A stretch of DNA of 47,153 bases from NCBI GenBank assembly GCA_026003395.1, contig BPHE01000016.1, positions 1-47,153 of the forward strand, read 5' to 3'. The notes below the pieces were generated by a model. It did no database searches and was not told the origin of the DNA. It saw nothing but the letters and a program-made list of their open reading frames with translations. Source of the stretch: Vicingaceae bacterium. Lineage in GTDB: Bacteria; Bacteroidota; Bacteroidia; Flavobacteriales_E; Vicingaceae. Of this stretch, positions 1-21,059 are shown in pieces. The position numbers and the translations under genes were made by a program. The number at the start of each line of letters is the position of its first letter. Positions within the stretch are counted from its first letter, which is position 1.

Positions 1-18
1 AAAATAAAAGACAACTTA

Positions 19-26: not shown

Positions 27-40
27 ATAAAAGTGGTTAT

Positions 41-1120: not shown

Positions 1121-1129
1121 AAAATTTAT

Positions 1130-1137: not shown

Positions 1138-1145
1138 CGTAATTG

Positions 1146-1176: not shown

Positions 1177-1207
1177 TATTTTGATTAATATTTAAAATAT
1201 TTAACTT

Positions 1208-1682: not shown

Positions 1683-1683
1683 T

Positions 1684-2073: not shown

Positions 2074-2082
2074 AATGGTTAT

Positions 2083-3442: not shown

Positions 3443-3453
3443 TTTTTTTAATT

Positions 3454-3921
3454 TTAAAATGGCAAATCGTCCTCTTCAATAGAGGATTCAAAATCGGAAT
3501 TTATGGCAGGTTCATTATTTAAGTCGGGTTTGTTTTGTTGTGTTGAATTGCCGGATTGATTTTGAACAGATGAATCATCTTCAAAATCATCCCTGCGGCC
3601 AAGCATGATAAAATTATCTACTTCAATTTCTGTGATATAACGTGTGGCATTATCTTTATCAGTATAGGAGCGAGTTTTAATCTTGCCTTCTATGTAAAGC
3701 TGGCGACCTTTTTTAACGTATTTTTCCACAATTTCTGCCTGGTTTCTCCATACCACTATATTGTGCCATGTGGTGTTTTCTACTCTTTGACCGCTTTTGT
3801 CGGTGTATGATTCCGAGGTGGCCAAGGGGAATTTGGCCAACTTTGTTCCGTTGTCAAGCGTAATTACTTCAGGGTCTTTTCCAACATTTCCTACTAAAAT
3901 AACTTTATTGATACTTGCCAT
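3454..3921 (-). CDS. ssb: single-stranded DNA-binding protein, full length with acidic tip
   Basis: This 155-residue SSB binds and protects single-stranded DNA in replication and repair. The OB fold covers about residues 1-112, with the VILVGNVGKDPEV start and WHNIVVW strand. It is followed by a polar, Gln/Asn-rich disordered linker and the C-terminal tip EEDDLPF, the docking site for partners such as exonuclease I, RecO and helicases. It lies 5 bases after a second ssb copy and 11 bases before gldE, so all three are probably one transcript. This copy looks like the functional housekeeping SSB. Confidence 0.95.
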   Translation of the reverse strand: MASINKVILVGNVGKDPEVITLDNGTKLAKFPLATSESYTDKSGQRVENTTWHNIVVWRNQAEIVEKYVKKGRQLYIEGKIKTRSYTDKDNATRYITEIEVDNFIMLGRRDDFEDDSSVQNQSGNSTQQNKPDLNNEPAINSDFESSIEEDDLPF

Positions 3922-3926
3922 AGTTT

Positions 3927-4289
3927 TTATGATTGGTTTTCAGTTTTTTGTGAATCGTCTCTTTTGCCTAATAATATAAAGTTTTCGGCTTCAATTTCGG
4001 TAACATAGCGCGTTGCATTGTCTTTATCCGTGTATGACCTTGTTTTGATTTTACCTTCTATATAAACTTGTTTGCCTTTGGAGATAAGTTTTTGGGCAGC
4101 TTGAGCAAGGCCTCTCCACATAACAATAGTGTGCCAGGTGGTTTGGTCTACACGATTACCGTCCTTATCAGTAAAACTTTCGCTGGTAGCCAAAGGGAAC
4201 TTAACGAGAGTGGTACCGCTATCCAGTTGAATTACTTCAGGGTCTTTACCCACATTGCCTATAAGCATTACTTTGTTTAAGCCGGACAT
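3927..4289 (-). CDS. second single-stranded DNA-binding protein, lacking the acidic C-terminal tip
   Basis: This 120-residue SSB-like protein consists almost only of the OB fold. By eye it is about 70% identical to the neighbouring SSB over 111 residues, and both share an identical block from YIEGK to NATRY. It ends in DDSQKTENQS, with no linker and no DDLPF tip. An SSB of this type could bind DNA, and perhaps form mixed tetramers, but should not recruit the usual partner enzymes. It is the first gene of the ssb-ssb-gldE group and sits behind a near-consensus promoter. It probably arose by tandem duplication and is not obviously decaying. Confidence 0.92.
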   Translation of the reverse strand: MSGLNKVMLIGNVGKDPEVIQLDSGTTLVKFPLATSESFTDKDGNRVDQTTWHTIVMWRGLAQAAQKLISKGKQVYIEGKIKTRSYTDKDNATRYVTEIEAENFILLGKRDDSQKTENQS

Positions 4290-4310
4290 AAAACTGAATT
4301 AAATCTATCA

Positions 4311-4340
4311 CAAACTTAAAAAAAATTGTAAGAACTGCAA
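4311..4340 (-). promoter_or_regulatory. promoter of the ssb-ssb-gldE transcript
   Basis: On the minus strand, TTG (4340-4338), a 19-base spacer and TAAGTTTG (4318-4311) match the Bacteroidota consensus exactly. The box ends 21 bases before the ATG at 4289. A second TAAGTTTG lies at 4369-4362 but has no TTG at the right distance. Confidence 0.7.
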
Positions 4341-4532
4341 ATTTTTTAACAATCAATAAAACAAACTTAGATAAAACATCATTTATACATAAACAGGATA
4401 AATATTTCATCGCTGTAATTTTAGAAGTTAATTTTCGCAAAATTGGTAGTATCCGAAATTGTGTTATGACATTTTAATTTTATTTTAAATTTATTCATTT
4501 TTTAAGAAGAAATTTCTTTTTAGGATTAAACA

Positions 4533-7500: not shown

Positions 7501-8351
7501 TTGGCAGTATGAATAAAATTTTCATATTCGTCTTTTTTTCGGACTTGAATTGTAAAATTTTGTTCATCAATATAAAATTCAAAAATTTTATCAAATAACT
7601 GTTTATCTTTTAATTTGTATTTTCGAATAGTTTTGTTCATTAATTTTTCATAAGTATCAGGACTAAAAAATTCTTTTAAAAACTTGGGATTCTTTTTTGC
7701 AATGTTGACCAATATTTCCTTTTCATAAATATTCAAGGGATAATTTTTATCGTATTTATCCTTATAATTATGCGTATTGACAAAATATTTGTCACCCTTT
7801 TTGAAAATGACAACTTCTTTGGATCTGTCAAAAAATTCTTTTATTGTAAAAGTAATTTTTTTCGAAATGTCTACACTTACAAATGTTTCTTTAAAATAAA
7901 AAAAACTTCTATTACACAAACTTTTAATTAATTGGACCTTCAAATTTTCTGCAGATGGAATTTCAAATGGTTCATTTTTTTTTCTTACAGTGATTCTTGA
8001 TTTAGTTTTTAATAAATAGGTGTATTTGGTTAGTTTCGAACGGTTGTTTAAGATATCTTTAAGGTGCATCAATGCCGCTATTGAATGCTTGCAATATTCA
8101 GACCAATTGTATGGGCAATTACAATCTACCGATATTTTACTCTTTGTAAAGTCTTTTATAATTATTTCATACCGATCGGTGCCATAAGCATGATATCTGG
8201 CATATCCATTTTCAGGTTCAAGCTCAATTAACTCCAATGAATTTTGGTTCAAAATATCTTTGGCTCTCGAGTAAATCTCCGACAAAGCCTTATCAATGAT
8301 TTTTTGAATATTTTGAATAGCAATGATTTTTGTTTGATTTCTTTTTGCCAT
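4533..8351 (-). CDS. large SWIM zinc-finger SNF2/Rad54-type helicase
   Basis: This 1272-residue cytoplasmic ATPase belongs to the bacterial SNF2 (HepA/RapA-like) group. A SWIM zinc finger near the N-terminus has C77, C79, C87 and H89 (CNC-x7-CKH). A long central region is not recognisable. The C-terminal third is the SNF2 motor: Walker A DDMGLGKT near residue 834, Walker B as LDESQ, motif III LSGTPIENN, the helicase C region LLIFSQFTSMLK, and motif VI DRTYRIGQT near residue 1215. Such proteins translocate along DNA and remodel protein-DNA or transcription complexes; the target is unknown. It is transcribed alone. It is rich in Lys, Asn and Ile and looks more AT-rich than its neighbours, which could mean separate origin, but nothing flanks it like a mobile element. 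Confidence 0.92.
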   Translation of the reverse strand: MAKRNQTKIIAIQNIQKIIDKALSEIYSRAKDILNQNSLELIELEPENGYARYHAYGTDRYEIIIKDFTKSKISVDCNCPYNWSEYCKHSIAALMHLKDILNNRSKLTKYTYLLKTKSRITVRKKNEPFEIPSAENLKVQLIKSLCNRSFFYFKETFVSVDISKKITFTIKEFFDRSKEVVIFKKGDKYFVNTHNYKDKYDKNYPLNIYEKEILVNIAKKNPKFLKEFFSPDTYEKLMNKTIRKYKLKDKQLFDKIFEFYIDEQNFTIQVRKKDEYENFIHTANDKNILTSIEYLTQDLPYLEGKSISDLRLAFILQKFEYKRNLLEHSIYGIIPAYGRPLKTKNSLSSYKLLYDFDDPHLRNIKLSPAQENLLMNIFKLNKIILNIQNFEWDEMENLHDTYKNIFQMLKNETHILINTHNSFNLNLIKYKSLKISKKHLKPVLIDENFSAEIFFELSKDEEVDLIKINPMFKLNDTTVPVYEALKESELIRPGFYYPKENKIYFLENEDFDLINKFSKPIYFKSEYIEILTDKVILSLSKKWKLSFDTSFPYQIESIQLLPQKKQIYLTEEDDNLIITPQVEYDQNISVKLSFRGNIYKINHNIITEFKRDEEFESDFNNFIASIHPYFENQKRYKIYKFPADELEKNLWIYEFFELLGQNNIEIFGLKELKKIKYSPFPSKITAHISSGIDWFDVNVNLSFGSEIVSLKDIKKAILNKNKFIQLKDGSIGRLSDEWLEKLNEYLKLGEIDDNNHIKISKLKFLIVEELFKDDAKADIIKEINEKKEKLEQLRKIEDINLPKSILASLRNYQKEGVKWLKFLDEMNWGGILADDMGLGKTLQIISFLELVKNKSKCPNLIVVPKTLLFNWQSEINKFCPSLKTYFHYGSKRIKTIKDIKKLNKYEVILTTYNTVINDLSLLEQVQFHYIILDESQAIKNTTSNRYKAAIRLKGKNKIALSGTPIENNTLDLYAQMNFVNPGFFGSIDKFKKNFSIPIDRNKDLTTSQKLQKMISPFILRRTKEQVAKELPPKTESIIYCEMHTEQRKIYDAYRNIFRKSVFDQINENGINKSSMFILKALTQLRMICDSPFLLKDEHVLTKESGKIKELLIHIKEKTSNHKLLIFSQFTSMLKLIEEKLDENNILYYYLDGKTSASRRMDIVNNFQNNENIRVFLISLKAGGAGLNITAADYVYIVDPWWNPAVENQAIDRTYRIGQTKSVFAYRMICKDSIEEKILNLQNKKKITASNIIKNDEHFVKNLDFDMLKELFD
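7346..7360. repeat. CCTGCC/GGCAGG short palindrome inside the SNF2 gene
   Basis: CCTGCC-ata-GGCAGG lies inside the helicase reading frame and encodes IPAYGRP on the minus strand. It stands out as a GC-rich patch in AT-rich DNA. Only one copy is seen in this window. Confidence 0.4.
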
Positions 8352-8513
8352 AGAAAATATTTTTTAACAAAAATTACAAACAAGTTTTCCGGACAAACTC
8401 AATTGTTCATATGAAATTTTCCCCGATATATCAAACATTACTAAATTCAACATTTTATTTCATAATACAAAAATGATAAAAAATCTTACAAGACAGAATA
8501 AAAACATTTAGTT

Positions 8514-8521
8514 TACCTTTG
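8514..8521 (+). promoter_or_regulatory. putative -7 box of the OsmC gene
   Basis: TACCTTTG matches TAnnTTTG exactly and ends 12 bases before the ATG at 8534. The TTG inside this box could be mistaken for an earlier start codon at 8519. The box argues that translation begins at 8534. Confidence 0.5.
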
Positions 8522-8533
8522 CAAAAAAACGAT

Positions 8534-8941
8534 ATGGAAATTAATCTTATCTGGGATGGGGGAATGAAATTTCATTCCTTGATAAATGGACATACTGTGA
8601 TTGTGGATGCTGATGGGTCAGTGGGGGGATCCGACCAGGGGCCAAGGCCTAAACCATTGATGTTGGTCGCTCTTGCCGGATGCACAGGAATGGATGTGGT
8701 GTCTTTGCTGAAAAAAATGAAAGTCAATTACGATTCTTTACAAATTAACATAATGGCCGAATTGACAGAAGAACATCCCAAAATTTTCAAGAATGTGCAT
8801 ATTGTATATGAGTTTGGCGGGAAAGGCATCGATAAAGATAAAGTAAAAAAAGCGGTGGATCTTTCACAAGAAAAATATTGCGGAGTAAGTGCCATGTTCA
8901 GGCATTTTGCCCGGCTGACCTACGAAATACGTTATTTGTAA
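8534..8941 (+). CDS. OsmC family protein (putative peroxiredoxin-like)
   Basis: This 135-residue protein of the OsmC/Ohr superfamily reduces organic hydroperoxides, or acts as a related thiol-dependent enzyme, in the cytoplasm. Both conserved cysteines are present: one in LAGCTGMDVVSLL and one in QEKYCGVSAMF. The body has the expected order of N-terminal strands, helix, second strand set and second cysteine helix. It belongs to the YhfA-like subgroup by its GCTGMD motif, whose substrate is poorly known. The start was set at ATG 8534 rather than the in-frame TTG at 8519, because that TTG lies in a promoter box. Confidence 0.88.
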   Translation: MEINLIWDGGMKFHSLINGHTVIVDADGSVGGSDQGPRPKPLMLVALAGCTGMDVVSLLKKMKVNYDSLQINIMAELTEEHPKIFKNVHIVYEFGGKGIDKDKVKKAVDLSQEKYCGVSAMFRHFARLTYEIRYL

Positions 8942-8972
8942 GGCGTTTGCAATAGTTAACACTGCAATAATG

Positions 8973-9002
8973 TTGAATTTTGTTTTACTATGGTTAATTT
9001 TA
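8973..9002 (+). promoter_or_regulatory. promoter of the enoyl-CoA hydratase gene
   Basis: TTG (8973-8975), a 19-base spacer and TAATTTTA (8995-9002) match the phylum consensus in all but the last base. The box ends 16 bases before the ATG at 9019. Confidence 0.55.
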
Positions 9003-9018
9003 CACAAAATATTATCAT

Positions 9019-9801
9019 ATGAATTACAAAAATTTGCTATTGGAAAAAGACAACGGTATTGCTTTGATTACCATTAACCGTCCGGAACAATTAAATGCAT
9101 TGAACCGCGAAACCATAGCAGAGCTGCATGATGCTCTGGATGCCTGTGAGCGAGACAGTGATGTGAAGGTAATTATTCTCACAGGAAGTGGTACAAAAGC
9201 ATTTGTGGCAGGTGCCGATATCAAAGAGTTTTATCGATTTACCCCTGAGGAAGGACGCCAATTAAGTGCCAATGGTCAAAAACAATTGTTTGATTTTGTT
9301 GAAAACCTTTCAAAACCTGTCATTGCAGCCATCAATGGATATGCCCTTGGAGGAGGACTGGAGTTGGCCATGAGTTGTCATATCCGTATTGCCTCAGATA
9401 ATGCAAGAATGGGCCTTCCGGAAGTTTCTTTGGGAGTCATTCCCGGTTATGGCGGAACACAACGTTTGCCTCGCCTAGTAGGAAAGGGAAAGGCGTGTGA
9501 AATGATTTTTACCGGAGAAATGATACAGGCTGCCGATGCCCTGCAGTGGGGATTGGTAAATCATGTCACAACTCAAGATAAGTTAATGGATTATTGCAAG
9601 GAATTGGCTGCCAAAATAATGAAAAACTCCATGGTGGCTATAGCTTCGGCCATTCGGGCAATCAATGCGGCATATGACAAAAAGGCAAATGGTTTTGAGG
9701 TTGAAATTGAAGAATTTGGCAAATGTTTTGGCACTGAAGATTTTAAAGAAGGTACAAATGCTTTTGTAGAAAAGCGAAAACCAAATTTCCCCGGAAAATA
9801 A
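9019..9801 (+). CDS. enoyl-CoA hydratase/crotonase family protein
   Basis: This 260-residue crotonase-fold enzyme, most likely a short-chain enoyl-CoA hydratase (3-hydroxybutyryl-CoA dehydratase type), adds water to trans-2-enoyl-CoA in fatty acid or amino acid degradation. The oxyanion-hole segments are AGADIKEF near residue 66 and GYALGGGLELAMSCHIRIAS near residue 110. Both catalytic glutamates are visible, one in GGLELA and one in GLPEVSLGVIPGYGGTQRL. Length is normal for a stand-alone hydratase. It is monocistronic by its own promoter; the M28 peptidase gene follows after 67 bases. Substrate preference cannot be read from the sequence. Confidence 0.92.
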   Translation: MNYKNLLLEKDNGIALITINRPEQLNALNRETIAELHDALDACERDSDVKVIILTGSGTKAFVAGADIKEFYRFTPEEGRQLSANGQKQLFDFVENLSKPVIAAINGYALGGGLELAMSCHIRIASDNARMGLPEVSLGVIPGYGGTQRLPRLVGKGKACEMIFTGEMIQAADALQWGLVNHVTTQDKLMDYCKELAAKIMKNSMVAIASAIRAINAAYDKKANGFEVEIEEFGKCFGTEDFKEGTNAFVEKRKPNFPGK

Positions 9802-9868
9802 ATTTTTACTTTTTGAAAATTTTTTGTATTTTCCACAGAATGATTACTAACCTTAAAAACTTTAACCA

Positions 9869-11506
9869 ATGAAATTTAACAGGATTGCTTATTTTTTATT
9901 CGTATTATTGTTTTTTTCTTATTTCAACCTAAATTCACAGAATGAAAAATTGATCCGGTCAAGCGTGGAATATTTGGCTTCGGATCAACTGAAAGGGAGA
10001 TACACTTCCAGCAAAGAGGAGTTGAAAGCCGCTCGATATATTGCAAGTCGTTTTAAAAAAGCAGGTCTTATTCCCTATAATGGTTTTACCGATTATTTGA
10101 TTCCGTTTGAATGGGAAGATTTGGAAAAAACATCCCGTCAATTTATCCGTTGGAAAAACCTTCAATGGGACGAAAGCGACTCATTGTTTCCGCTAATTTA
10201 TAGCAATGATCAAGAGGTGAAAGGCCCTGTCATGTATTATGGTGATGTGTCCATTCAGGAATTTACTGATGATACTGAAGGAAATGAGGCGCGAGGAGAT
10301 ATTGTGGCTATCAACATAGATTTTTTCAAAAACAATCCTCATGTTGCCGGTGATCTTGATGCAATCAAAGCTGCAAGAAGGGTTGTTGAAAAAGGAGCGA
10401 TCGGAATAGTTTTTTATACAACAAGATACAAAGACGAATTTAAAAGAGAATATAAAGCAAAATCGCCTGCATGGGGTGTGCCTGTTTTTTTTGCTGCATT
10501 TGATCTGAAAAAAATTGTCCCTGAAAATGACACATTGCTTTTGCACAGCGAAATAAAAAGAACCAAAAAAAAGAGTTATAACGTGGCTGGATTTAAGAAC
10601 AACGGATCAGACAAAACAATCATCATAGGTGCACACTATGATCATTTGGGCATGGGAGGAGAAAACTCATTGCACAGAGGAAACCCTGAGATTCATAATG
10701 GAGCCGATGACAATGCCAGCGGTGTGGCCGGCATGATTTATTTGGCCGAATTATTGTCGAAAAAACAAAACTCCCGGTTTAATTATCTTTTTATTGCTTT
10801 CTCGGGAGAAGAACTTGGTTTGTTGGGATCGTCCTCCTTTGTCAAACAGATTGAGGATAAATACAAAAAACAATGGTTTTGCATGATTAATTTCGATATG
10901 ATAGGGCGACTTGACAAACAAAGCAAAAAATTGGCCGTTTATGGCACCGGCACTGCCGGCGAGTGGAAAACAATCATAGATAAAACCAATCCCGGATTTC
11001 AACTAAACTTTCATGAAGATGGTGTGGGACCTTCGGATCATACTTCATTTTATTTGGAAAATCTGCCCGTATTGCATTTTTTCACCGGACAACATGCCGA
11101 TTATCACAAACCTACCGACGATGTCGATAAATTAAATATTGAGGGTATCAAAGAAATATCTGATTGGGTGGGTGCAATCATTGACGTGTTGGAGAAAAAT
11201 CCTGTGTTGACTTTTCAAAAAACAGCTTCGGGCACAAGCGACAATGTGCGTTTTAAGGTGACGTTAGGAATAATACCCGATTATGTTTTTTCGGGAAAAG
11301 GAGTAAGAATAGATGGTATTATTGATGATCGCCCGGCACAAAAAGCCGGATTGCAAAAAGGAGATATTATTTTGCAACTTGGGGAATTCGAAGTGATCGA
11401 TATGCAAACTTACATGAAGGCTCTGGGGAAATTTGAAAAAGGTCAAACGGTTGATGTTGTGGTGGACAGGAACGGCAATGTTTTCAAAACAAACGTGACA
11501 TTTTGA
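9869..11506 (+). CDS. M28 family zinc aminopeptidase with C-terminal PDZ domain
   Basis: This exported 545-residue metallopeptidase has a signal peptide over residues 1-24 (cleavage near NSQN). A PA-like insertion follows at about residues 95-215. The M28 catalytic domain has the co-catalytic zinc ligands in GAHYDHLGMGG (near 255), NGADDNASGVAG (near 278), AFSGEELGLLGS (catalytic Glu and Glu ligand), NFDMIGRL and the final His in HADYHKPTDD. A PDZ domain occupies about residues 450-545 (GVRIDGIIDDRPAQKAGLQKGDII). It probably trims peptides in the periplasm or at the cell surface; no type IX sorting domain is seen. gpsA begins three bases after the stop codon, suggesting co-transcription. Confidence 0.92.
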   Translation: MKFNRIAYFLFVLLFFSYFNLNSQNEKLIRSSVEYLASDQLKGRYTSSKEELKAARYIASRFKKAGLIPYNGFTDYLIPFEWEDLEKTSRQFIRWKNLQWDESDSLFPLIYSNDQEVKGPVMYYGDVSIQEFTDDTEGNEARGDIVAINIDFFKNNPHVAGDLDAIKAARRVVEKGAIGIVFYTTRYKDEFKREYKAKSPAWGVPVFFAAFDLKKIVPENDTLLLHSEIKRTKKKSYNVAGFKNNGSDKTIIIGAHYDHLGMGGENSLHRGNPEIHNGADDNASGVAGMIYLAELLSKKQNSRFNYLFIAFSGEELGLLGSSSFVKQIEDKYKKQWFCMINFDMIGRLDKQSKKLAVYGTGTAGEWKTIIDKTNPGFQLNFHEDGVGPSDHTSFYLENLPVLHFFTGQHADYHKPTDDVDKLNIEGIKEISDWVGAIIDVLEKNPVLTFQKTASGTSDNVRFKVTLGIIPDYVFSGKGVRIDGIIDDRPAQKAGLQKGDIILQLGEFEVIDMQTYMKALGKFEKGQTVDVVVDRNGNVFKTNVTF

Positions 11507-11508
11507 TC

Positions 11509-12501
11509 ATGAACGAGAGAGTAGGAGTATTAGGTTCAGGAAGTTGGGCCACGGCATTGGTGAAAATATTGTCAGAAAATGAAGATACTGTCAATTGGTG
11601 GATTAGAAACTACCGGACGTTGGACTATATTAAACAATATGGGCATAATCCCAATTACTTGAGTTCTGCGTCTTTAAACGTAAATAAACTTAATCTTTAT
11701 CAAGATGTCGAAAAATTTTTGGAAGACACTGATATTATTGTGGTTGCAGTGCCTGCAGCTTTTTTGCATCAAACTTTAAACCCATTGCCAAAAAAACTCT
11801 GGGAAGGAAAGAAAATTGTTTCCGCCATTAAAGGCATGATACCGGAATTTCACAGCATTCCTGCACGTTATTATCACAAGCAATGGGGCATACCATACGA
11901 AGACATAGCCATGATTTCGGGTCCATGCCATGCCGAAGAGGTGGCTATGGAAAAATTGTCATATCTGACAGTTGCTTCTGAAAATACCGGATATGCAGAA
12001 AAAGTGGCTTCAAAAATTCGTTGCCGTTTTGTCAAATCCACAGTGTCGGACGATTTATTTGGCACAGAGCTTTCGGCTATCATGAAAAATATTTATGCAT
12101 TGTGTGCAGGCATATATCATGGTTTGGGATACGGCGATAATTTCCAGGCCGTTTTAATTTCTAATTCCATCCAAGAGATTGAAAGGTTTGTCGATGCCGT
12201 TAATCCCATTCACAGGGATGTGAAAACCTCGGCATATCTTGGAGATCTTTTGGTGACAGCATATTCACAGTTTTCCCGTAACCGCACTTTTGGAAGCATG
12301 ATTGGGAAAGGATATTCGGTCAAAACAGCCCAATTGGAATTAAACATGACAGCCGAAGGATACTATGCCGTAAAGAGCATCATCGAAATCAACAAAAAGT
12401 TTAATGTGGATATACCCATTTGCATGGCAGTTTACCGCGTCTTGTATGAAAAAATATCTCCCTGGGTAGAGATGCAACTGTTAACACAAAAACTTTCATG
12501 A
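11509..12501 (+). CDS. gpsA: NAD(P)H-dependent glycerol-3-phosphate dehydrogenase
   Basis: GpsA reduces dihydroxyacetone phosphate to sn-glycerol 3-phosphate for phospholipid synthesis. The 330-residue protein starts with the Rossmann motif VGVLGSGSWATALV. It carries the substrate-site segments SGPCHAEEVAME and the catalytic-lysine region ELSAIMKNIYALCAGI, followed by GLGYGDNFQA. The start is ATG 11509. An in-frame TTG at 11503 overlaps the previous stop codon and is less likely. The stop overlaps the next gene's ATG by four bases (ATGA), so the peptidase, gpsA and tsaC genes form a tight operon. Confidence 0.95.
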   Translation: MNERVGVLGSGSWATALVKILSENEDTVNWWIRNYRTLDYIKQYGHNPNYLSSASLNVNKLNLYQDVEKFLEDTDIIVVAVPAAFLHQTLNPLPKKLWEGKKIVSAIKGMIPEFHSIPARYYHKQWGIPYEDIAMISGPCHAEEVAMEKLSYLTVASENTGYAEKVASKIRCRFVKSTVSDDLFGTELSAIMKNIYALCAGIYHGLGYGDNFQAVLISNSIQEIERFVDAVNPIHRDVKTSAYLGDLLVTAYSQFSRNRTFGSMIGKGYSVKTAQLELNMTAEGYYAVKSIIEINKKFNVDIPICMAVYRVLYEKISPWVEMQLLTQKLS

Positions 12502-13517
12502 ATACCACAATAATTGAAATCAAAGGTCCGCATGAAAGAGATAAAATCTTGCAGGCCGCCCGTTTTATAGTAGAAGGGCATACGGTGGTTTTTCCCACCG
12601 AAACGGTTTATGGCATAGGTGCGGATGCATTTAACGCCGGAGCGGTAAAAAAAATTTTTGAAACAAAAAATCGTCCACAGGACAATCCCTTGATAGTGCA
12701 TATAGCCACTTTTGAACAATTTTTGGAAATTTCCTCAATGGCTGATGAGCAATTGCTTGAGGTGCTAAGAAAATTTTGGCCGGGCCCTTTGACTGTCATA
12801 GTGCCTCACAAAGGAAATATTCCTGCTATGGTGACCACCGGGTTGCCGACCGTTGGTATACGTATGCCCGGTCATATTGTCGCCAGGGAGATAATCAAAG
12901 AATCGGGACGTCCTGTGGCCGCTCCTTCAGCCAATTTTTCAGGGGAGCCCTCATCCACAAGGTTTGAGCATGTTTTGCAAGATTTTCAAGGGAAAGTGCC
13001 TTGTATTGTCAAAAGCTTCGAACCGGAGATTGGCATGGAGTCGACGGTTTTGGATGTAACTTCTCAACCATGGAGAATTTTGAGGCCGGGATATATTTCG
13101 GCAAAGGAGATATCGGATTTTTCCGGTTTACCGGTGGTATATGCCAAAAAATCGGATGGAGACAAGCCTCTTTCTCCCGGAATGAAATACCGTCATTATG
13201 CTCCCAAAAAACCTTTGTTTGTTTTTTCATCTGATAGCCCGGAAGAATTGTTGAAAGCGTTATTTCAAACAAAAAAACCGAAAAGATTCTGGATTGTTTC
13301 AAAGGATTTTCCCATAGAAACATATTTCTCTCCACAAGATACCGTCATAAACTATCACGATGGTGAAGATTTGATAAAAAATCTTTACTACTGGTTGAAA
13401 GAATCAGACCGTTTGAATCCGGATTATATACTGCTTGAATATCCTGAAGGACTATCACCCGAAAAAGACATATTGCTCAGAAACCGTCTTGAAAAAGCCG
13501 CAAATGAATTTTTGTAA
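12498..13517 (+). CDS. threonylcarbamoyl-AMP synthase (Sua5/YrdC/YwlC family)
   Basis: This enzyme makes threonylcarbamoyl-AMP from threonine, bicarbonate and ATP, the first step of the t6A37 modification of ANN-decoding tRNAs. At 339 residues it is the long Sua5 form. The YrdC domain (about residues 10-200) carries FPTETVYGIGADAFN, KNRPQDNPLIVHI and APSANFSGEPSSTR. The C-terminal Sua5 domain (about 215-339) is reached through the conserved linker SPGMKYRHYAPKKPL. It overlaps gpsA by four bases. A hairpin covers the stop codon. Confidence 0.94.
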   Translation: MNTTIIEIKGPHERDKILQAARFIVEGHTVVFPTETVYGIGADAFNAGAVKKIFETKNRPQDNPLIVHIATFEQFLEISSMADEQLLEVLRKFWPGPLTVIVPHKGNIPAMVTTGLPTVGIRMPGHIVAREIIKESGRPVAAPSANFSGEPSSTRFEHVLQDFQGKVPCIVKSFEPEIGMESTVLDVTSQPWRILRPGYISAKEISDFSGLPVVYAKKSDGDKPLSPGMKYRHYAPKKPLFVFSSDSPEELLKALFQTKKPKRFWIVSKDFPIETYFSPQDTVINYHDGEDLIKNLYYWLKESDRLNPDYILLEYPEGLSPEKDILLRNRLEKAANEFL

Positions 13518-13544
13518 GAAAATCACTGTAGCAATGGTTTTCTT
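13516..13544 (+). terminator. hairpin at the end of the peptidase-gpsA-tsaC operon
   Basis: AAGAAAATCA (13516-13525) pairs with TGGTTTTCTT (13535-13544), including one G-U pair, around a 9-base loop. It overlaps the stop codon. There is no long T tract after it, so termination strength is uncertain. Confidence 0.4.
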
Positions 13545-13607
13545 AAGAGATAGCGAACTTATGACCGGAAATTGATATCAAAAAATTCGATTAATTAAAT
13601 TCTGACT

Positions 13608-13615
13608 TAAATTTG
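13608..13615 (+). promoter_or_regulatory. putative -7 box for the lipoprotein-dnaG-clc operon
   Basis: TAAATTTG matches the consensus exactly. A near match to the -33 box (TTC) lies about 19 bases upstream, at 13586-13588. The ATG at 13685 is 69 bases further on. Confidence 0.4.
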
Positions 13616-13684
13616 TTGCATAAATATTTTAAAGTAACAGATAATTCAATAAAAATGCTGTCTTATAATTTGTTATCTTTACGC

Positions 13685-14119
13685 ATGAAAGTGTTTTTAA
13701 TAATTATCACACAGTTGATATGTTTTATCATTTTGACAGCATGTCAAAACGAAAAACCGGTCAAAGAAATTGTAGAAAAGTTTCCGGATGGTAAGGTAAA
13801 GAAGGAGGTGTTTTACCTGAAGCAACAGGACAAAAAAGAACCGGTTAAAGAAATAGAATATTATTCCAATGGAAAAATAAAACTTGAAGGAACTTACAAA
13901 AACGGCAAAATGCACGGAAAGTGGAAAGTTTATTATGAAAATGGCATGGTTTGGAGCGAAGGTGAATATGTTGACGGATTGCGCGAAGGATATTCAAAAG
14001 TTTACTATCCAAGCGGAAAATTGCAATTTGAAGGCGAGTATAAAAAGGGCCAACGTACCGGTACATGGAAATTTTATACGCCCGACGGTAAAGTACAAAA
14101 AATTGTCAGTTTCCAATGA
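13685..14119 (+). CDS. MORN/YwqK-repeat lipoprotein
   Basis: This predicted lipoprotein of 144 residues has a hydrophobic signal followed by the lipobox LTAC, giving a lipidated Cys near residue 20. The mature part has at least three repeats of the form YYxNGKxxxEGxYKxGKxxGxWKxY, the MORN-like unit of the YwqK antitoxin family. Despite that family name there is no toxin next to it. In Bacteroidota such repeat lipoproteins are common and of unknown role. An in-frame start at 13613 would add 24 residues and hide the lipoprotein signal, so 13685 is preferred. Its stop overlaps the dnaG start by four bases. Confidence 0.8.
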   Translation: MKVFLIIITQLICFIILTACQNEKPVKEIVEKFPDGKVKKEVFYLKQQDKKEPVKEIEYYSNGKIKLEGTYKNGKMHGKWKVYYENGMVWSEGEYVDGLREGYSKVYYPSGKLQFEGEYKKGQRTGTWKFYTPDGKVQKIVSFQ

Positions 14120-16101
14120 TCGACCAACAAACCATAGATCGCATCTTTGAATCGGCAGATATTGTAGATGTTGTTTCGACGTTTGTGCAACTCAAACGTA
14201 GAGGCAGCAACTGGATAGGATTGTGCCCTTTTCATGACGAAAAAACCCCTTCGTTTACCGTCAATCCCGTCAAGGGCATTTATAAGTGCTTTGGATGTGG
14301 CAAGGGAGGCAATGCTGTGACATTTATCATGGAACACGAAAAACTTACCTATCCCGAAGCATTGAGGTTTTTGGCCAAAAAATACAATATACCCATTGAA
14401 GAAAGCGAAGAACAAAACGAAGAAAGACAACAAAAAAAGAGTTTACGGGATCAACTCTATCATGTTCATCAATTGGCTCATGGGTTTTATGTAAAACAAC
14501 TCTGGGAAACCGATGAAGGCAGAAGCGTGGGATTGGGATATTTTCTCGAAAGAGGAATGTCAGAAAATACCATCAAAACCTTTGGATTGGGATACAGTCC
14601 TGCAGATAAAACGGCATTGATTCAATACCTCTTGAAAAATGGTATTGAAGAAACCTTAATCGAACAGTCGGGAATCGGGGTGAGGTATGGCCAAACACTT
14701 GTCGACAGGTTCCATGACAGGGTGATTTTTCCTTTACAAAACATTACCGGAAGAGTGATAGGTTTTGCCGGACGGATATTGGTTAAAACCGACAAAGCCA
14801 AATATGTCAATTCCCCCGAAACTTTGATTTACGAAAAAGGAAAATACCTGTTTGGTCTTTATTATTCCAAAAATGCCATAGTAAAAAACGCAAAAGCATT
14901 TTTGGTAGAAGGTTATATGGATTTTCTGTCGCTATATGAAAGCGGTATAACCAATGTGGTGGCCGGATCGGGCACAGCATTCACATCCGAACAGATTAAA
15001 TTGTTGAAAAGGTTTACAAAACACATAACATTGATCTATGACTCAGATGCGGCTGGATATAACGCAGCCGAAAAAGCCGCCCATGCATTGTTGTTTGAAG
15101 ATCTGGATGTTTCAATAGTGCCACTACCGGCCGGAGAAGACCCCGACTCCCTGGCAAAAAAGTTAATGCCCGGTGAGTTGCAAAATTACGTTTCAACAAA
15201 CGAACAGGATTTCATTCTTTATCAACTGTCTAAATTGCCTCCGGCTGATCGTATGGAGCCGCGCCAAAAGAGAGATGCTGTAAATCAGCTTTTGCAATCC
15301 GTGGCATGTATCAAGGATGTGATACTTCGGAGCTCGTATATTCAAAAAATTGCTGCAAAACTCCGGGTTGACGAAAGTGCACTTTCATTGGAAGCACACA
15401 AGTTGCATCTCAAATTAAAAGAAGAAACGCTCAACCGTCAAGCTCGCGAAAATCTTAAATTACCCTCCCCTACCCAGGGCGACGAAACAATTGAAAACGA
15501 AAGCTCAGAAGACGACCGGATCATAGCAGCAGCCGATCCACTTGTGGCCAATGCAGAAGCCGAATATCTGAGATTGTTAATCGAACATGGCGATAAGAAT
15601 GTAATTTTGACCTTGAACAACGACGGTCATAAAGAAGAAATAGAAATAAATGTGGCAGTTCAGATGATAATAGAGTTGGAAGAAGACGGATTTGAATTTT
15701 CGCACCCCCTCTACAAGAAGGTTTTTGATTTTTACAAGTCGCTGTATAAACAAAACATCGATCATCATGAAATTGTAAAAAAAATAAAAACTCATAACGA
15801 TGCAGAATTTGTAAATTTATATGTTTCTTTGACGGAAAATAATTTTCAGCTTTCGGAAAAATGGAAAAAAGAATGGCATGTGGAAGTAACCGAGCGCGAT
15901 CAGTTTCTCGAAAGGGTTTTTGAACATGTGGTGAGGTCTTTTAAGATTGTAAAAATCAATGAGAAATTGGAAGTTTTGAGAAAAAAATTAAAAGAAACAC
16001 CCCAAGATTCAGAAGATATTCTTTTTATCATACAAGAAATAAACAAATACGAAAATTTTAAAAAAGAAATGGCCAAATCATTGGGATGGACCATCCTTTA
16101 A
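14116..16101 (+). CDS. dnaG: DNA primase
   Basis: DnaG makes RNA primers for DNA replication. The 661-residue protein has the CHC2 zinc-binding domain near residues 37-65 (CPFHDEKTPSF, then KCFGCGKGG). The RNA polymerase/TOPRIM core includes VEGYMDFLSLYESG (catalytic Glu) and IYDSDAAGYNAAEKAA (DxD). The C-terminal helicase-interaction region, from about residue 430, is charged and less conserved, as usual. The gene overlaps the upstream lipoprotein by four bases and the downstream ClC gene by 16 bases, which suggests translational coupling. Confidence 0.96.
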   Translation: MIDQQTIDRIFESADIVDVVSTFVQLKRRGSNWIGLCPFHDEKTPSFTVNPVKGIYKCFGCGKGGNAVTFIMEHEKLTYPEALRFLAKKYNIPIEESEEQNEERQQKKSLRDQLYHVHQLAHGFYVKQLWETDEGRSVGLGYFLERGMSENTIKTFGLGYSPADKTALIQYLLKNGIEETLIEQSGIGVRYGQTLVDRFHDRVIFPLQNITGRVIGFAGRILVKTDKAKYVNSPETLIYEKGKYLFGLYYSKNAIVKNAKAFLVEGYMDFLSLYESGITNVVAGSGTAFTSEQIKLLKRFTKHITLIYDSDAAGYNAAEKAAHALLFEDLDVSIVPLPAGEDPDSLAKKLMPGELQNYVSTNEQDFILYQLSKLPPADRMEPRQKRDAVNQLLQSVACIKDVILRSSYIQKIAAKLRVDESALSLEAHKLHLKLKEETLNRQARENLKLPSPTQGDETIENESSEDDRIIAAADPLVANAEAEYLRLLIEHGDKNVILTLNNDGHKEEIEINVAVQMIIELEEDGFEFSHPLYKKVFDFYKSLYKQNIDHHEIVKKIKTHNDAEFVNLYVSLTENNFQLSEKWKKEWHVEVTERDQFLERVFEHVVRSFKIVKINEKLEVLRKKLKETPQDSEDILFIIQEINKYENFKKEMAKSLGWTIL

Positions 16102-17882
16102 TCATAAAAAAACTAATTAACCGCATAATAATTTATACAAACCGGCTCATTGCCGGTAACGAAACACGCAAAATCATTGTTTTGTCGGTCTTAACAGGTA
16201 TTTTATCGGGAGTACTGGCTGTGTTGGTAAAACGATCGACAATTGCCGTGCATTGGTTGGTCAATTTGTTCAATACCATCGATTGGGGAAATTATTTTTA
16301 TTTCGTATCTCCATTGCTGGGTATAAGCATAACGGTGTTGATCGCACACAGGTTGTTAAAGAAAAAAGTTTCGCACGGCATTCCTTCCACTATCTATGCC
16401 ATTATCCGTAAAAAAAGCAGATTGCCCTTTCATGCCACTTACAGTTCGATGATCACCAGTTTGTTTACAGTCGGTTTTGGCGGATCGGTTGGATTAGAAG
16501 GACCTTCTGTTTCTACGGGAAGCGCCATAGGATCGGTGGTGGGAAGATTTTTCAATCAAAACTACAAAACCACCACGGTTTTGCTGGCGGCCGGAGCGGC
16601 AGGGGCCATTTCGGGCATTTTTTCTGCACCGGTAGGAGCCATGATTTTTGTATTGGAAATTTTTATGTTTGATTTTTCAGCTTCGTTTTTGTTGCCGGTG
16701 TTGTTATCCAGTTCTATGGCTGCGCTGACAAGCATGTTTATTTACGGAAAAGATGCCATATTCAAATTTAGTGTGCAGAGTTTTGCAATGAAAAATATCC
16801 CTTTATACATCATTTTGGGTATTTTGTGCGGCATGTATTCGGTGTATTTTGTAGATGTGGTCAAAAAAGTGGAAAAATTCAGCAACAAAAGAAAAACACG
16901 TCCGTGGAAAAGAATAATCGTTTATGGCATACCTTTGGGTTGGATGATTTTTTTTATCCCGCCTTTGTATGGCGAGGGCTATGAAGTGATCACAAGAATA
17001 GCCGGAGGTGATATCAAAGCATTGGTAGAGCACAGTATTTTTTATCATCAATGGAATAACGGATTATTGATGCTTGTTTTGATAGCAGGAATACTTTTTT
17101 TCAAGCCGTGGGCCACCTCATTGACATTTGCGGCCGGAGGGGTTGGTGGCATATTTGCCCCATCATTTTTTGCCGGAGGGATATTGGGATTTTTTTTGTT
17201 GTATATTTTACAACAATTTGCCGAATGGGATCAAATGGCTTTTGCCAACTTTACATTGGCAGGCATGGCCGGAGTTATGGCGGGTGTGATGCATACTCCT
17301 TTGACAGCCGTCTTTCTGGTGGCCGAACTGGCCAACGGATACAATATTTTCATTCCTTTGATGCTCACGGTGGCATTGTCCTATGCAACATCGCGCTATT
17401 TTAATCCCGAGTCGATTTATCAATGGCAGATGAAAAACGAAGGACTCAATGTGGCGGGGGTGAAAGAAAGTATTATTTCATTCAGCCATCATGCCAAAGA
17501 TATTTTAGAAAAAGATTTTGTACCTGTTTATGAAGACGAAACTTTGGGAAGCATGATCGAAAAAATAAAAATCTCCAGGCGGAACACATTTCCCGTAATT
17601 GACAGGGAAAATAATTTCAAAGGGGTATTGACGATCGATCAATTGAAAGATTATTTGTTTGACCGGACTAAATATGACATGCCTGTCAAACAATTGGTCC
17701 AAAAAACGGAAACATTGATTTATCCCTACCATACGTTGGATTACGTGTCAAAACAATTTCAAGCGACCAAACAATGGAACCTGCCGGTAGTAAGCAAAAA
17801 CGGAAAGTATCTCGGTTTTGTGTCAAGGTTTAAAGTAATGGAAAAGATAAAAGAAACACTTTTAAGGGAGAATGGATTTTAA
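16086..17882 (+). CDS. ClC family chloride channel/transporter with CBS domains
   Basis: This 598-residue inner-membrane protein has the ClC fold in residues 1-430 and a cytoplasmic CBS pair at about 465-595. The ion-binding loops are visible: HGIPSTI (N-terminal loop), GLEGPSVSTGSAIGS with the gating glutamate, and GGIFAPSFFAGGILG. Family members are either channels or chloride/proton antiporters; the residue at the proton-glutamate site could not be assigned by eye. The CBS pair (FVPVYEDETLGSMIEKI, then DYVSKQFQATKQWNLPVV) may bind nucleotides and regulate transport. It begins 16 bases inside dnaG, an unusual pairing of functions in one transcript. Confidence 0.94.
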   Translation: MDHPLIIKKLINRIIIYTNRLIAGNETRKIIVLSVLTGILSGVLAVLVKRSTIAVHWLVNLFNTIDWGNYFYFVSPLLGISITVLIAHRLLKKKVSHGIPSTIYAIIRKKSRLPFHATYSSMITSLFTVGFGGSVGLEGPSVSTGSAIGSVVGRFFNQNYKTTTVLLAAGAAGAISGIFSAPVGAMIFVLEIFMFDFSASFLLPVLLSSSMAALTSMFIYGKDAIFKFSVQSFAMKNIPLYIILGILCGMYSVYFVDVVKKVEKFSNKRKTRPWKRIIVYGIPLGWMIFFIPPLYGEGYEVITRIAGGDIKALVEHSIFYHQWNNGLLMLVLIAGILFFKPWATSLTFAAGGVGGIFAPSFFAGGILGFFLLYILQQFAEWDQMAFANFTLAGMAGVMAGVMHTPLTAVFLVAELANGYNIFIPLMLTVALSYATSRYFNPESIYQWQMKNEGLNVAGVKESIISFSHHAKDILEKDFVPVYEDETLGSMIEKIKISRRNTFPVIDRENNFKGVLTIDQLKDYLFDRTKYDMPVKQLVQKTETLIYPYHTLDYVSKQFQATKQWNLPVVSKNGKYLGFVSRFKVMEKIKETLLRENGF

Positions 17883-17920
17883 TATATCAGAAAAATTCAT
17901 GTATTTTTCTATTTTGAGGC

Positions 17921-17944
17921 ACTATTCACCGATAAAAATCAAAA
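17921..17944 (+). repeat. transposon-end-like repeat, copy 1 (left of the restriction-modification operon)
   Basis: ACTATTCACCGATAAAAATC begins here. Including the preceding C, it matches copy 2 (20807-20831) at 24 of 25 bases in the same orientation. The inverted copy at 21037-21056 matches 17 of 20 bases. The end lies 5 bases before the dpnM promoter box. Confidence 0.75.
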
Positions 17945-17949
17945 AATTG

Positions 17950-17957
17950 TAAATTTG
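17950..17957 (+). promoter_or_regulatory. putative -7 box of the restriction-modification operon
   Basis: TAAATTTG matches the consensus exactly. It lies 29 bases inside the tip of repeat copy 1. A similar box, TATATTTA, lies 32 bases inside the tip of copy 2 (20840-20847), so it may be part of the element's own end. No good TTG is seen 19 bases upstream. Confidence 0.45.
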
Positions 17958-17987
17958 CTTAACTTATAATGATAAAATTTAAGAAGG

Positions 17988-18911
17988 ATGGCAGAAAGAA
18001 TTGCGAAGCCATTTTTAAAATGGGCCGGAGGAAAAACACAAATTATACATCATATAAGAAAAGTTTTACCAAATTTTATCTATAACGAAAAGTTTACTTA
18101 TATTGAATCGTTTGTGGGTAGTGGTGCTGTTTTGTTTTGGATGCTAAACAACTTTCCAAATCTAAAAAAAGCCGTTATAAATGACATTAATGAAGACCTA
18201 ATAAATACTTACAAAGCAATAGCCTCTAAGCCAAAAGAATTGATCTCGATTCTTGAAATTCTACAATACGAATTTCACATGCTTGAAGGTCGAGATGAAG
18301 AAAAAAAAGAATATTACTATAAAAAAAGAGATCTTTACAATAAAAGACAAGAAGATCCTATCGTACAAGCCGCTTTGTTTATTTTCCTCAATCGCACTTG
18401 TTTCAATGGTCTTTATAGAGTAAACAGTAAAAATCAATTTAATGTGCCAATGGGCAGTTACAAGAGACCAACAATTTGTGATGAGGAAAATATTTTGGCT
18501 GTTAGTCGAGTGTTACAAAAAGTTGATATAATTTGTGGTGACTTTGAAGAAACGCTAAATTATGCGGAAAATAACACGCTGTTTTATTTTGACCCGCCTT
18601 ATAAACCTTTGAGCGAAACATCAAGTTTTAATTCTTATGCAAAAGAAAAGTTTAACGATGCCGATCAAATCAGATTAAGAGATTTTTGTCATAAGCTTGA
18701 TGCTTTAGGTTACACTTGGATTTTGAGTAATTCGGATGTAAAAGGTAAGGATAAGAACGATAATTTTTTTGACGACTTATATTCTGACTTCAATATTCAA
18801 AGAGTAGATGCAAGACGAAGCATTAATGCCAATCCGGAAAAAAGGGGCAAATTGAAAGAGTTATTAATTACCAATTATGTAACAATTCAAGAATATGTCA
18901 GATCAATTTAA
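17988..18911 (+). CDS. dpnM: GATC-specific adenine methyltransferase, DpnM/Dam type
   Basis: This 307-residue class-alpha N6-adenine methyltransferase of the D12 family transfers a methyl group from S-adenosylmethionine to the A of GATC. It carries FLKWAGGKTQII and FVGSGAVLFW (cofactor site) near the N-terminus, a central target-recognition region with LNRTCFNGLYRVN, and the catalytic DPPY near residue 200. It protects the host from the endonuclease encoded next. Its 3' end overlaps that gene by 17 bases. The specificity is inferred from family resemblance and the DpnII-type partner. Confidence 0.94.
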   Translation: MAERIAKPFLKWAGGKTQIIHHIRKVLPNFIYNEKFTYIESFVGSGAVLFWMLNNFPNLKKAVINDINEDLINTYKAIASKPKELISILEILQYEFHMLEGRDEEKKEYYYKKRDLYNKRQEDPIVQAALFIFLNRTCFNGLYRVNSKNQFNVPMGSYKRPTICDEENILAVSRVLQKVDIICGDFEETLNYAENNTLFYFDPPYKPLSETSSFNSYAKEKFNDADQIRLRDFCHKLDALGYTWILSNSDVKGKDKNDNFFDDLYSDFNIQRVDARRSINANPEKRGKLKELLITNYVTIQEYVRSI

Positions 18912-19734
18912 AACCTTCTTGTCGCAGTTATCAGAGACAAATGCTACTCTTGATTATTTCACGGATTTCGATAAAATAAAAACCAACGTAAATAAAATAG
19001 CCATCAAACTAAACCAACTTAATTATTTAATCGGAAAAGCAGATATTAAAAAAGCGATCCATGAACTATATGAAGAAAACCCTAAAGTTTTTGAAGTTTT
19101 AGATATTCTCATTGCTGTTCGCAAAAATAAAAATGCCAAGACCATTAACAACAAAGGCGAAATTGTGACGCTTGATTCTTATTTCACTTCTCCGGAAAGC
19201 ATTTGTGAATTTATTGAAGAAACCGGGTTAGGTGAAATTTTCCGAAATAAAGACATTAAAAACTTAGTTGATTACGTTTTTGGCATAGAAGTTGGGTTAG
19301 ACACAAACGCAAGAAAAAACAGGGGTGGTGAGAATATGTCTAAAGCCGTTTCAATATTTTTCGATAAAGCCAATGTCTTTTATAAAAAAGAAGTGACTAT
19401 AACCGAATTCCCAGAAATAGTGAGTTTGGGTGCAGATGTAAAACGTTTTGATTTTGTGATTAAAACAAAAAAGAAAACATATTTGATTGAAGCCAATTTT
19501 TACAATAGTGGTGGATCAAAACTTAATGAAACCGCCAGATCATATTCTGATCTTGCACAGAAAATCAATCAATACAAAAACTACGAGTTTGTTTGGATTA
19601 CAGACGGGCGGGGGTGGCTTTCGGCCAAGAATAAATTGGAAGAAGCATTCAATATAATTCCGAGTATCTATAATCTTAAAACCCTTGAAAACTTTATTGA
19701 AAAAGTAAGATTAGAAGAAATAGTGAAATTTTAA
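18895..19734 (+). CDS. dpnB: DpnII/MboI-type restriction endonuclease
   Basis: This 279-residue type II endonuclease, expected to cut unmethylated GATC, resembles R.DpnII along its whole length. Shared segments include NYLIG, NLVDYVFGIEVGLDTNARKNRGGE, VKRFDFVIK and LIEANFYNSGGSKLNETARSY, then FVWITDGRGW. The acidic residues in KRFDFVI (near residue 185) and LIEANFY (near 198) fit a PD-(D/E)xK-type active site. It starts within dpnM, so methylase and nuclease are translationally linked. No break or missing segment is visible. Confidence 0.95.
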   Translation: MSDQFKTFLSQLSETNATLDYFTDFDKIKTNVNKIAIKLNQLNYLIGKADIKKAIHELYEENPKVFEVLDILIAVRKNKNAKTINNKGEIVTLDSYFTSPESICEFIEETGLGEIFRNKDIKNLVDYVFGIEVGLDTNARKNRGGENMSKAVSIFFDKANVFYKKEVTITEFPEIVSLGADVKRFDFVIKTKKKTYLIEANFYNSGGSKLNETARSYSDLAQKINQYKNYEFVWITDGRGWLSAKNKLEEAFNIIPSIYNLKTLENFIEKVRLEEIVKF

Positions 19735-19736
19735 AT

Positions 19737-19851
19737 ATGCCAGCAAAAGAAGCTGCATAGTTTAGTTACGGCAAAAAGTGGAAAGAGTTAGATTCAATAA
19801 TGAGGTCTTATGGATTTTGAACAAATGACACTAAATAATTTAAAAAGATAA
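19737..19851 (+). other. intergenic stretch with small broken frames between dpnB and dpnA
   Basis: An ATG at 19737 opens MPAKEAA, then a TAG, then stays open in the same frame as FSYGKKWKELDSIMRSYGF. A second short frame begins at 19810 (MDFEQMTLNNLKR), and its stop directly touches the dpnA ATG. It may be the relic of a small gene or simply leader sequence. No function is recognised. Confidence 0.3.
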
Positions 19852-20757
19852 ATGCTTGTGCCTTATTTCAAATCTGAAGACAAAAACTTTTATCTCCTTA
19901 AAGGAGATACCATGGAGATTTTACCTCAGTTTGATCATAAATTCGATATGATTTTTGCCGACCCACCTTATTTCTTGTCTAATGACGGTCTGTCTGTTCA
20001 AAACGGACAAATCGTAAGTGTGAATAAGGGCAGCTGGGACAGATCTCACGGCTTTAAATTCATAAACGAATTCAATCGCAAATGGCTTTCATTGGTTCGT
20101 AAAAAAATGAAAGATGATGCAACTATTTGGATAAGCGGAACTATGCACAATATTTTTTCAATTGGCCAAGTTTTGATAGAATTAGACTTTAAAATTTTAA
20201 ATATCATCACCTGGGAAAAGACCAATCCTCCGCCAAATTTTTCGTGCCGATATTTTACCCATTCATCCGAGCAGATTATTTGGGCAAGAAAATCGGCCAA
20301 AGTTCCTCATTACTTCAATTATGATTTAATGAAACAACTTAATGGAGGAAAACAAATGAAAGATGTTTGGAAACTTCCTGCAATCGCACCATGGGAAAAA
20401 ACTTGTGGCAAACACCCAACACAAAAACCGCTTTCGCTTCTGACAAGAATAATTTTGGCTTCAACAAAACCAAATGCTTGGATTTTAGACCCATTTACAG
20501 GTAGTTCTACAACCGGTATTGCAGCAAACCTTCTAAACAGACGATTTTTAGGGATTGACCAAGAAGAAGAATTTTTAATAATTTCTAAAAATAGAAAACT
20601 TGAAATTGAGAACCCAAGAACGGCTGCTACATTTAGGCAGAAGATTGGTGGTTTCAACAACTCTAAAGAACTTGAAATATTTTTGATGAAAGAACCAATA
20701 GAAGAATATAAAACAGAACTAAACTTAATGTTAAAGAAAAAGAGTGACTCACAATAG
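19852..20757 (+). CDS. dpnA: second GATC methyltransferase, DpnA/M2.DpnII type
   Basis: This 301-residue class-beta DNA methyltransferase has the catalytic motif FADPPYFLSNDG first (near residue 36) and the cofactor motif WILDPFTGSSTTGIAA last (near residue 222). Between them lie TWEKTNPPPNFSCRYFTHS and GKHPTQKP, both typical of DpnA. In Streptococcus pneumoniae DpnA methylates GATC in single-stranded as well as double-stranded DNA, protecting incoming DNA during transformation. A second methylase of this class is the rule in DpnII and MboI systems. The ATG directly follows a stop codon in another frame. Confidence 0.94.
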   Translation: MLVPYFKSEDKNFYLLKGDTMEILPQFDHKFDMIFADPPYFLSNDGLSVQNGQIVSVNKGSWDRSHGFKFINEFNRKWLSLVRKKMKDDATIWISGTMHNIFSIGQVLIELDFKILNIITWEKTNPPPNFSCRYFTHSSEQIIWARKSAKVPHYFNYDLMKQLNGGKQMKDVWKLPAIAPWEKTCGKHPTQKPLSLLTRIILASTKPNAWILDPFTGSSTTGIAANLLNRRFLGIDQEEEFLIISKNRKLEIENPRTAATFRQKIGGFNNSKELEIFLMKEPIEEYKTELNLMLKKKSDSQ

Positions 20758-20806
20758 AATATAATAGAATATTAGGAGAAATAGCGGGTTGTGTGATAAT
20801 TTAATT

Positions 20807-20831
20807 CACTATTCTCCGATAAAAATCAAAA
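20807..20831 (+). repeat. transposon-end-like repeat, copy 2 (right of the restriction-modification operon)
   Basis: ACTATTCTCCGATAAAAATC starts at 20808. It is a direct repeat of copy 1 (24 of 25 bases) and forms an inverted pair with copy 3 (18 of 20 bases). Confidence 0.8.
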
Positions 20832-21056
20832 GTGGTAATTATATTTATCGAAAGTATTGTTCTTATGGAGATTGTTTTTAATGTAAGCCCCTCTTTTATT
20901 CTCTTTTTTTAATCAACTATTTAATGAAGCTCACAGTTGGGTGGTTGGTTTTCTTTTATCCAATCTTACTTAGGAATTTCAAGAAACTTGATTAAATGTT
21001 TGTAGCGGAACAAATGTAATCTGTAGAAACTTTCAAGGTTTTTATCGGACAATAGT
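20808..21056. mobile_element. candidate miniature inverted-repeat element (249 bases)
   Basis: The segment begins ACTATTCTCCGATAAAAA and ends TTTTTATCGGACAATAGT, terminal inverted repeats matching at 17 of 18 bases. It holds no intact gene. On the minus strand a short open stretch reading FRYKHLIKFLEIPK ends at a TAA and could be a transposase remnant, but I do not recognise it. No convincing target-site duplication is seen at the borders. Together with copy 1 at 17921 it brackets the restriction-modification genes. This segment accounts for most of the 367-base gene-free stretch from 20758 to 21124. Confidence 0.6.
21037..21056 (-). repeat. transposon-end-like repeat, copy 3 (inverted)
   Basis: On the minus strand this reads ACTATTGTCCGATAAAAACC. 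It is the inverted partner of copies 1 and 2. It ends 3 bases before the TTG box of the next gene's promoter. Confidence 0.75.
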
Positions 21057-21059
21057 TGT

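What the first reader, a model, noticed from the sequence alone, without database searches (positions are those of the whole stretch)
17921..21056. DpnII-type restriction-modification operon bracketed by transposon-end-like repeats
Three copies of a roughly 20-base sequence lie around the restriction-modification genes: ACTATTCACCGATAAAAATC at 17921, ACTATTCTCCGATAAAAATC at 20808, and the inverted ACTATTGTCCGATAAAAACC ending at 21056. The first and third copies form terminal inverted repeats around a 3,136-base unit that contains the complete dpnM-dpnB-dpnA operon. The second copy makes a smaller nested unit. No transposase gene is present. The inference is a non-autonomous, trans-mobilised element carrying a restriction-modification cassette, or a cassette inserted beside a miniature element. 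Defence genes packaged between short transposon ends without a transposase would be a mobile defence unit worth describing.
Basis: partly seen in the sequence, partly recalled or inferred. Interest (0 to 1): 0.8.

Follow-up and report, generated by a model that had tools for sequence, protein, structure and literature searches.

The report
Restriction genes between insertion-sequence end remnants
A complete DNA-cutting defence operon sits between one bare end and one shrunken copy of a jumping gene whose full-length version survives elsewhere in the same genome, so it could in principle be moved as a passenger, but nothing shows that it has moved as a unit.

Summary
The three repeats are real and are ends of an insertion sequence. 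The same ends bound a 1,418-bp IS4-family element (IS4Sa-type ends) with an intact 405-aa transposase elsewhere in the genome. Window 20808-21056 is a 249-bp miniature derivative of that IS: about 233 bp of its left end plus a short inverted end. The copy at 17920-17944 is a solo 25-bp left end joined directly to the native promoter of an intact dpnM-dpnB-dpnA (GATC-type) operon. Ends 1 and 3 therefore do form inverted repeats around a transposase-free 3.1-kb unit, the layout of a "mobile insertion cassette". Movement as a unit is not shown: no target duplication, no second copy, and no empty site (no close relative is held). The first two copies are direct repeats, so a degraded IS-operon-IS arrangement, already described for restriction-modification systems, fits best. 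A second locus in the same genome has a similar layout: two direct left ends around a GmrSD-like pair, though an IS256-family element adjoins one end. No IS or MITE examined in this genome keeps a target duplication, so its absence does not decide. Verdict: observation confirmed, interpretation partly supported; a new member of a known kind.

The parts
17920..17944 (+). Solo left end (25 bp) of an IS4Sa-type insertion sequence: CACTATTCACCGATAAAAATCAAAA
   Evidence: The next 43 bp do not align to the IS better than shuffles do.
17945..17987 (+). Native leader of the restriction-modification operon; holds TAAATTTG at 17950-17957, which fits the Bacteroidota -7 box TAnnTTTG (box consensus from own knowledge)
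   Evidence: The stretch from about 17943 (AAAATTGTAAATTTG) is shared with many distant relatives of the operon.
17988..18911 (+). dpnM: D12-class (Dam-like) adenine methyltransferase, 307 aa
   Evidence: Pfam PF02086 E 4.7e-66; solved DpnM 2dpm E 4.4e-60
18895..19734 (+). dpnB: DpnII-family restriction endonuclease, 279 aa
   Evidence: Pfam PF04556 E 1.1e-99; 84% to the nearest homologue
19852..20757 (+). dpnA: second adenine methyltransferase, 301 aa
   Evidence: Pfam PF01555 E 6.1e-57
20807..20831 (+). Left end of the miniature element; direct repeat of 17920-17944
20808..21056 (+). 249-bp miniature derivative (MITE-like internal deletion) of the IS: about 233 bp of the IS left end, 82% identical, then an inverted end
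21037..21056 (-). Inverted end ACTATTGTCCGATAAAAACC, right end of the miniature element and outer right end of the 3.1-kb unit

Best explanation
A horizontally acquired DpnII-type restriction-modification operon lies between remnants of two same-orientation copies of an IS4Sa-subgroup insertion sequence. The left copy is cut down to its outermost 25 bp and the right copy to a 249-bp MITE. The outer ends (17920 and 21056) formally make a transposase-free unit with the layout of a mobile insertion cassette, which the intact transposase elsewhere in the genome could recognise in trans. Shown: the ends, the IS, the MITE, the intact operon and the junction. Inferred: that the solo end is a deletion product of a second IS copy, possibly through the AAAA shared at the junction. 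Not shown: that the 3.1-kb unit has transposed or can.
For: Same ends on a 1,418-bp IS with an open 405-aa transposase at C2:7025-8239 and a decayed copy on C4. IS4-family HMM NF033592 E 3e-62, DUF4372 + DDE_Tnp_1. Ends CA......T and 9-bp target duplications (seen in relative G010) match the IS4Sa subgroup (PMC2266710). The MITE aligns to the IS left end. Other MITEs occur in this genome and in G010. The operon's own promoter region starts where the IS end stops. Direct-orientation pairs of the same IS are also seen on C2 and C13. RM genes flanked by direct IS repeats are known, and IS-linked movement of an RM system was demonstrated in E. coli (PMC3031569).
Against: The left copy has only 25 bp, so a former full IS there is inferred. 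No target duplication is seen at either outer end. The coincidence that the deletion stopped right at the operon's promoter needs an A-run microhomology or selection. A simple solo end plus an unrelated MITE insertion explains the same letters.
Confidence: 0.45

Rival explanations
1. True mobile insertion cassette: the 3,136-bp unit (17920-21057) was inserted here in one step by the IS4Sa transposase acting in trans on the outer ends.
For: Inverted outer ends 17/20 identical, complete passenger operon, no internal transposase, intact cognate transposase in the genome. Mobile insertion cassettes mobilised in trans are known for the IS4 family (MIC231; cited in PMC3913671).
Against: Flanking 9-mers (ATTTTGAGG / GTTTGGAAA) agree at only 5 of 9. 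No second copy of the unit. The internal second left end is not needed by this model.
Confidence: 0.25
2. Coincidence: the operon arrived by another route; a MITE inserted downstream, and the solo end is an unrelated scar with no part in mobility.
For: MITEs and truncated ends occur elsewhere in this genome. Relatives of the operon sit in many contexts, including integron-like cassettes in Treponema.
Against: About ten left ends in 2.5 Mb make a tandem pair 2.9 kb apart unlikely by chance, and C13 has a second such pair. Copies 1 and 2 share the unusual C at position 7.
Confidence: 0.17
3. The operon was inserted into the left end of a resident MITE with a 25-bp target duplication, as described for other restriction-modification systems with longer duplications.
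For: 25-bp direct repeats lie tightly around the operon (43 bp before dpnM, 49 bp after dpnA) and share a private C at position 7.
Against: The repeat begins exactly at the IS terminus, which a random duplication need not do. Published duplications of this type are called long and variable (PMC3031569).
Confidence: 0.13

Closest known systems
Mobile insertion cassettes (MIC231; mic-qnrD)
   Same: Inverted IS-like ends, passenger gene(s), no transposase, trans-mobilisation possible
   Different: Cargo is a complete restriction-modification operon; ends are of IS4Sa type; no target duplication; extra internal left end; movement not shown
IS-flanked restriction-modification gene complexes (putative composite transposons)
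   Same: Restriction-modification genes between direct copies of one IS
   Different: Here both copies are degraded: one to 25 bp, one to a 249-bp MITE
IS4 family, IS4Sa subgroup, and its MITEs and solo ends
   Same: CA......T ends, 9-bp target duplications (in relative G010), YREK transposase, size 1,418 bp
   Different: Window copies carry no transposase and no target duplication
DpnII restriction-modification system
   Same: dpnM-dpnB-dpnA content and domains
   Different: Gene order M-B-A rather than the pneumococcal M-A-B (own knowledge); borders are IS remnants

Membership tests
Mobile insertion cassette | Inverted ends shared with a known or co-resident IS | tested here: met
Mobile insertion cassette | Passenger genes and no transposase between the ends | tested here: met
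Mobile insertion cassette | Cognate transposase available in the genome | tested here: met
   Open 405-aa transposase on C2; its activity is unknown
Mobile insertion cassette | Target-site duplication around the unit | tested here: inconclusive
   No 9-bp duplication (5/9 match); but none of the other elements with both ends examined in this genome has one either
Mobile insertion cassette | Evidence of movement: second copy or empty site | tested here: inconclusive
   Single copy; no relative close enough for an empty site
Composite transposon (IS-RM-IS) | Two IS copies flanking the cargo | tested here: inconclusive
   Direct-orientation remnants only, 25 bp and 249 bp
IS4 family, IS4Sa subgroup (the parent IS) | CA......T ends, 8-10 bp target duplication, YREK motif, 1,150-1,750 bp | tested here: met
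   CACTATTGT end; 9-bp duplications in relative G010; YKKRWQIELLFKQLK in the transposase; 1,418 bp. Assignment by these features, not by ISfinder.
DpnII restriction-modification system | DpnM-, DpnB- and DpnA-type genes together, all open | tested here: met
DpnII restriction-modification system | Cuts and methylates GATC | not testable with these tools
   Host GATC observed/expected 0.74, not exceptional among palindromic 4-mers

The most novel reading that the evidence does not exclude
This IS4Sa family repeatedly packages restriction genes: the DpnII operon here and a GmrSD-like pair on contig C13 are both bracketed by direct left ends, one of them solo, which would make a family of minimal trans-mobilised defence cassettes.
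Probability: 0.12. Interest if true: 0.6.

Novelty: new member of a known kind. Interest (0 to 1): 0.36.

Why it matters
If the unit moves, it shows how a whole restriction-modification operon could travel with only about 25 bp of transposon sequence on one side and a 249-bp MITE on the other, invisible to annotation pipelines that look for transposases. It would add a restriction cargo to the mobile-insertion-cassette class. As it stands, it is a well-preserved example of insertion-sequence scars around a defence operon.

Tried and rejected
Empty site: dnaG-ClC adjacency is kept in some family members, but proteins are only 40-44% identical and the downstream genes are not shared, so no site could be compared. 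A ClC scan of genome contigs found no relative. Contig C7 repeats window 1-16881 (99.9-100% identical, with one replaced stretch) but ends before the unit. IS ends in viral contigs: none. IS ends near 86 RM homologue loci: 4 hits at 4 mismatches versus 7 for a reversed control. Homology of the 43-bp leader to the IS: rejected. A general integron attC search around homologues: no excess over the control, and only the Treponema loci convincing. Target duplications at outer and inner ends: none. GATC avoidance: weak.

Full report
Observation. The 24 bases shared by the first two copies never occur in 100 shuffles of the window. Adding one base gives CACTATTC[A/T]CCGATAAAAATCAAAA at 17920-17944 and 20807-20831, in the same orientation. 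The third copy is inverted. Between copies 1 and 2 lies only the intact operon dpnM (17988-18911), dpnB (18895-19734), dpnA (19852-20757); all three are full-length family matches.

What the repeats are. The same ends occur about ten more times in the 2.54-Mb genome. They bound a 1,418-bp insertion sequence on C4 (transposase decayed, four stops) and on C2 (transposase open, 405 aa). The transposase is of the IS4 family (NF033592, E 3e-62; DUF4372 plus DDE_Tnp_1). By its CA......T termini, size and YREK motif it fits the IS4Sa subgroup, for which 8-10 bp duplications are reported (PMC2266710). I checked the duplication length in relative G010, where IS and MITE copies carry 9-bp duplications: TTTATAAAA (L097/L198), ATTATTTTA (L199), ATTAGAAAT (L206), ATTACCTTT (L211), ATATTTAGT (L186).

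The right-hand element. Window 20808-21056 aligns over its first 233 bases to the IS left end (82%), including the tail of the transposase gene, and ends in a short inverted end. It is a MITE-like internal deletion. Similar ones lie on C9 (274 bp) and C8 (447 bp), with further partial or short copies on C5, C7 and C13.

The left-hand end. Copy 1 is a solo end: the 43 bases after it are no more like the IS than shuffles are. They match instead the leader of related operons from many Bacteroidota, which share AAAATTGTAAATTTG from about window 17943 on. So an IS end is joined directly to the operon's own promoter region, with a run of A at the joint. That is compatible with a deletion between an IS copy and the operon, but an A-run in AT-rich DNA is weak evidence.

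Did the 3.1-kb unit move? Formally 17920-21057 has the layout of a mobile insertion cassette. The definition used for such cassettes adds a target duplication as the usual sign of transposition (PMC3913671). The flanking 9-mers here are ATTTTGAGG and GTTTGGAAA (5/9 alike), and the inner MITE alone has AATTTAATT and GTTTGGAAA (3/9). None of the other elements with both ends examined in this genome (C4, C2, C8, C9) shows a duplication either, so the test does not discriminate; lost duplications are common after recombination between copies or adjacent deletions (PMC11708052). The endonuclease gene is single-copy. No close relative is held: the same-family ClC proteins are at most about 44% identical, and the genes downstream of the unit are not shared. 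Contig C7 repeats the window's first 16.9 kb as a strain variant but stops about 1 kb short of the unit.

Direct repeats and a second locus. Among eight left ends found with a strict 25-mer, two are solo, and each has a same-orientation left end a few kilobases downstream: 2.9 kb here, and 5.1 kb on C13 with an IS256-family gene and two GmrSD_N genes between. On C13 the IS256-family element adjoins the solo end and no right end was seen, so that locus has its own ordinary explanation. On C2 two direct IS copies flank a duplicated rpsP-rimM segment. The family is thus often found in direct pairs, which fits a degraded IS-cargo-IS arrangement. Direct IS repeats around restriction-modification genes, and movement of such a system linked to IS copies, are described (PMC3031569).

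Origin of the operon. No member of the same family among the genomes searched carries the endonuclease, while homologues 75-84% identical occur across Bacteroidota; operon GC is 0.33 against 0.36-0.39 in the flanks. This points to horizontal acquisition. Homologues in three Treponema loci sit between attC-like repeats, so relatives use other vehicles too.

Verdict. Transposon ends, a cognate IS and a MITE are shown. A trans-mobilised restriction cassette is possible and not excluded, but a scarred IS-operon-IS region is at least as likely. It is a new member of a known kind.

Noticed in passing
G000:C13 (L056) 980-6249: Solo 31-bp IS left end, IS256-family transposase gene, two GmrSD_N (DUF262) genes, then a second left end with about 160 bp of MITE in the same orientation; 35-nt direct repeats at 89%.
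   Followed up: partly
L053 (G000:C2) 4578-8600: Two direct IS copies (one lacking its left 385 bp) flank rpsP-rimM, and rpsP is repeated after the second copy: a tandem duplication or an assembly join at the IS.
   Followed up: partly
window 1-16881 versus L049 (G000:C7 end): Contig C7 repeats this stretch at 99.9-100% identity; window 13517-13738 is replaced there by a 1,156-bp stretch with a different gene. The genome bin holds two strain variants.
   Followed up: partly
L151, L152, L156: Treponema DpnII operons flanked by attC-like repeats (GCATAAC...GTTATGC), i.e. integron-type cassettes.
   Followed up: partly
L108, L110, L111, L116, L120, L124: Upstream of DpnII operons in unrelated Bacteroidota lies a shared sequence GTTAGCCGACACCC...ACGAC.[AG]TGC; in L124 GCTAACA..GGTTTTGCAAAA occurs on both sides of the operon. 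Possibly another cassette junction.
   Followed up: partly
L050 / L117 (Sphingobacterium sp. CZ-2 chromosome): An 80% identical DpnII operon lies near a gene that looks like a tyrosine-type integrase (read from its sequence, no family search run).
   Followed up: no
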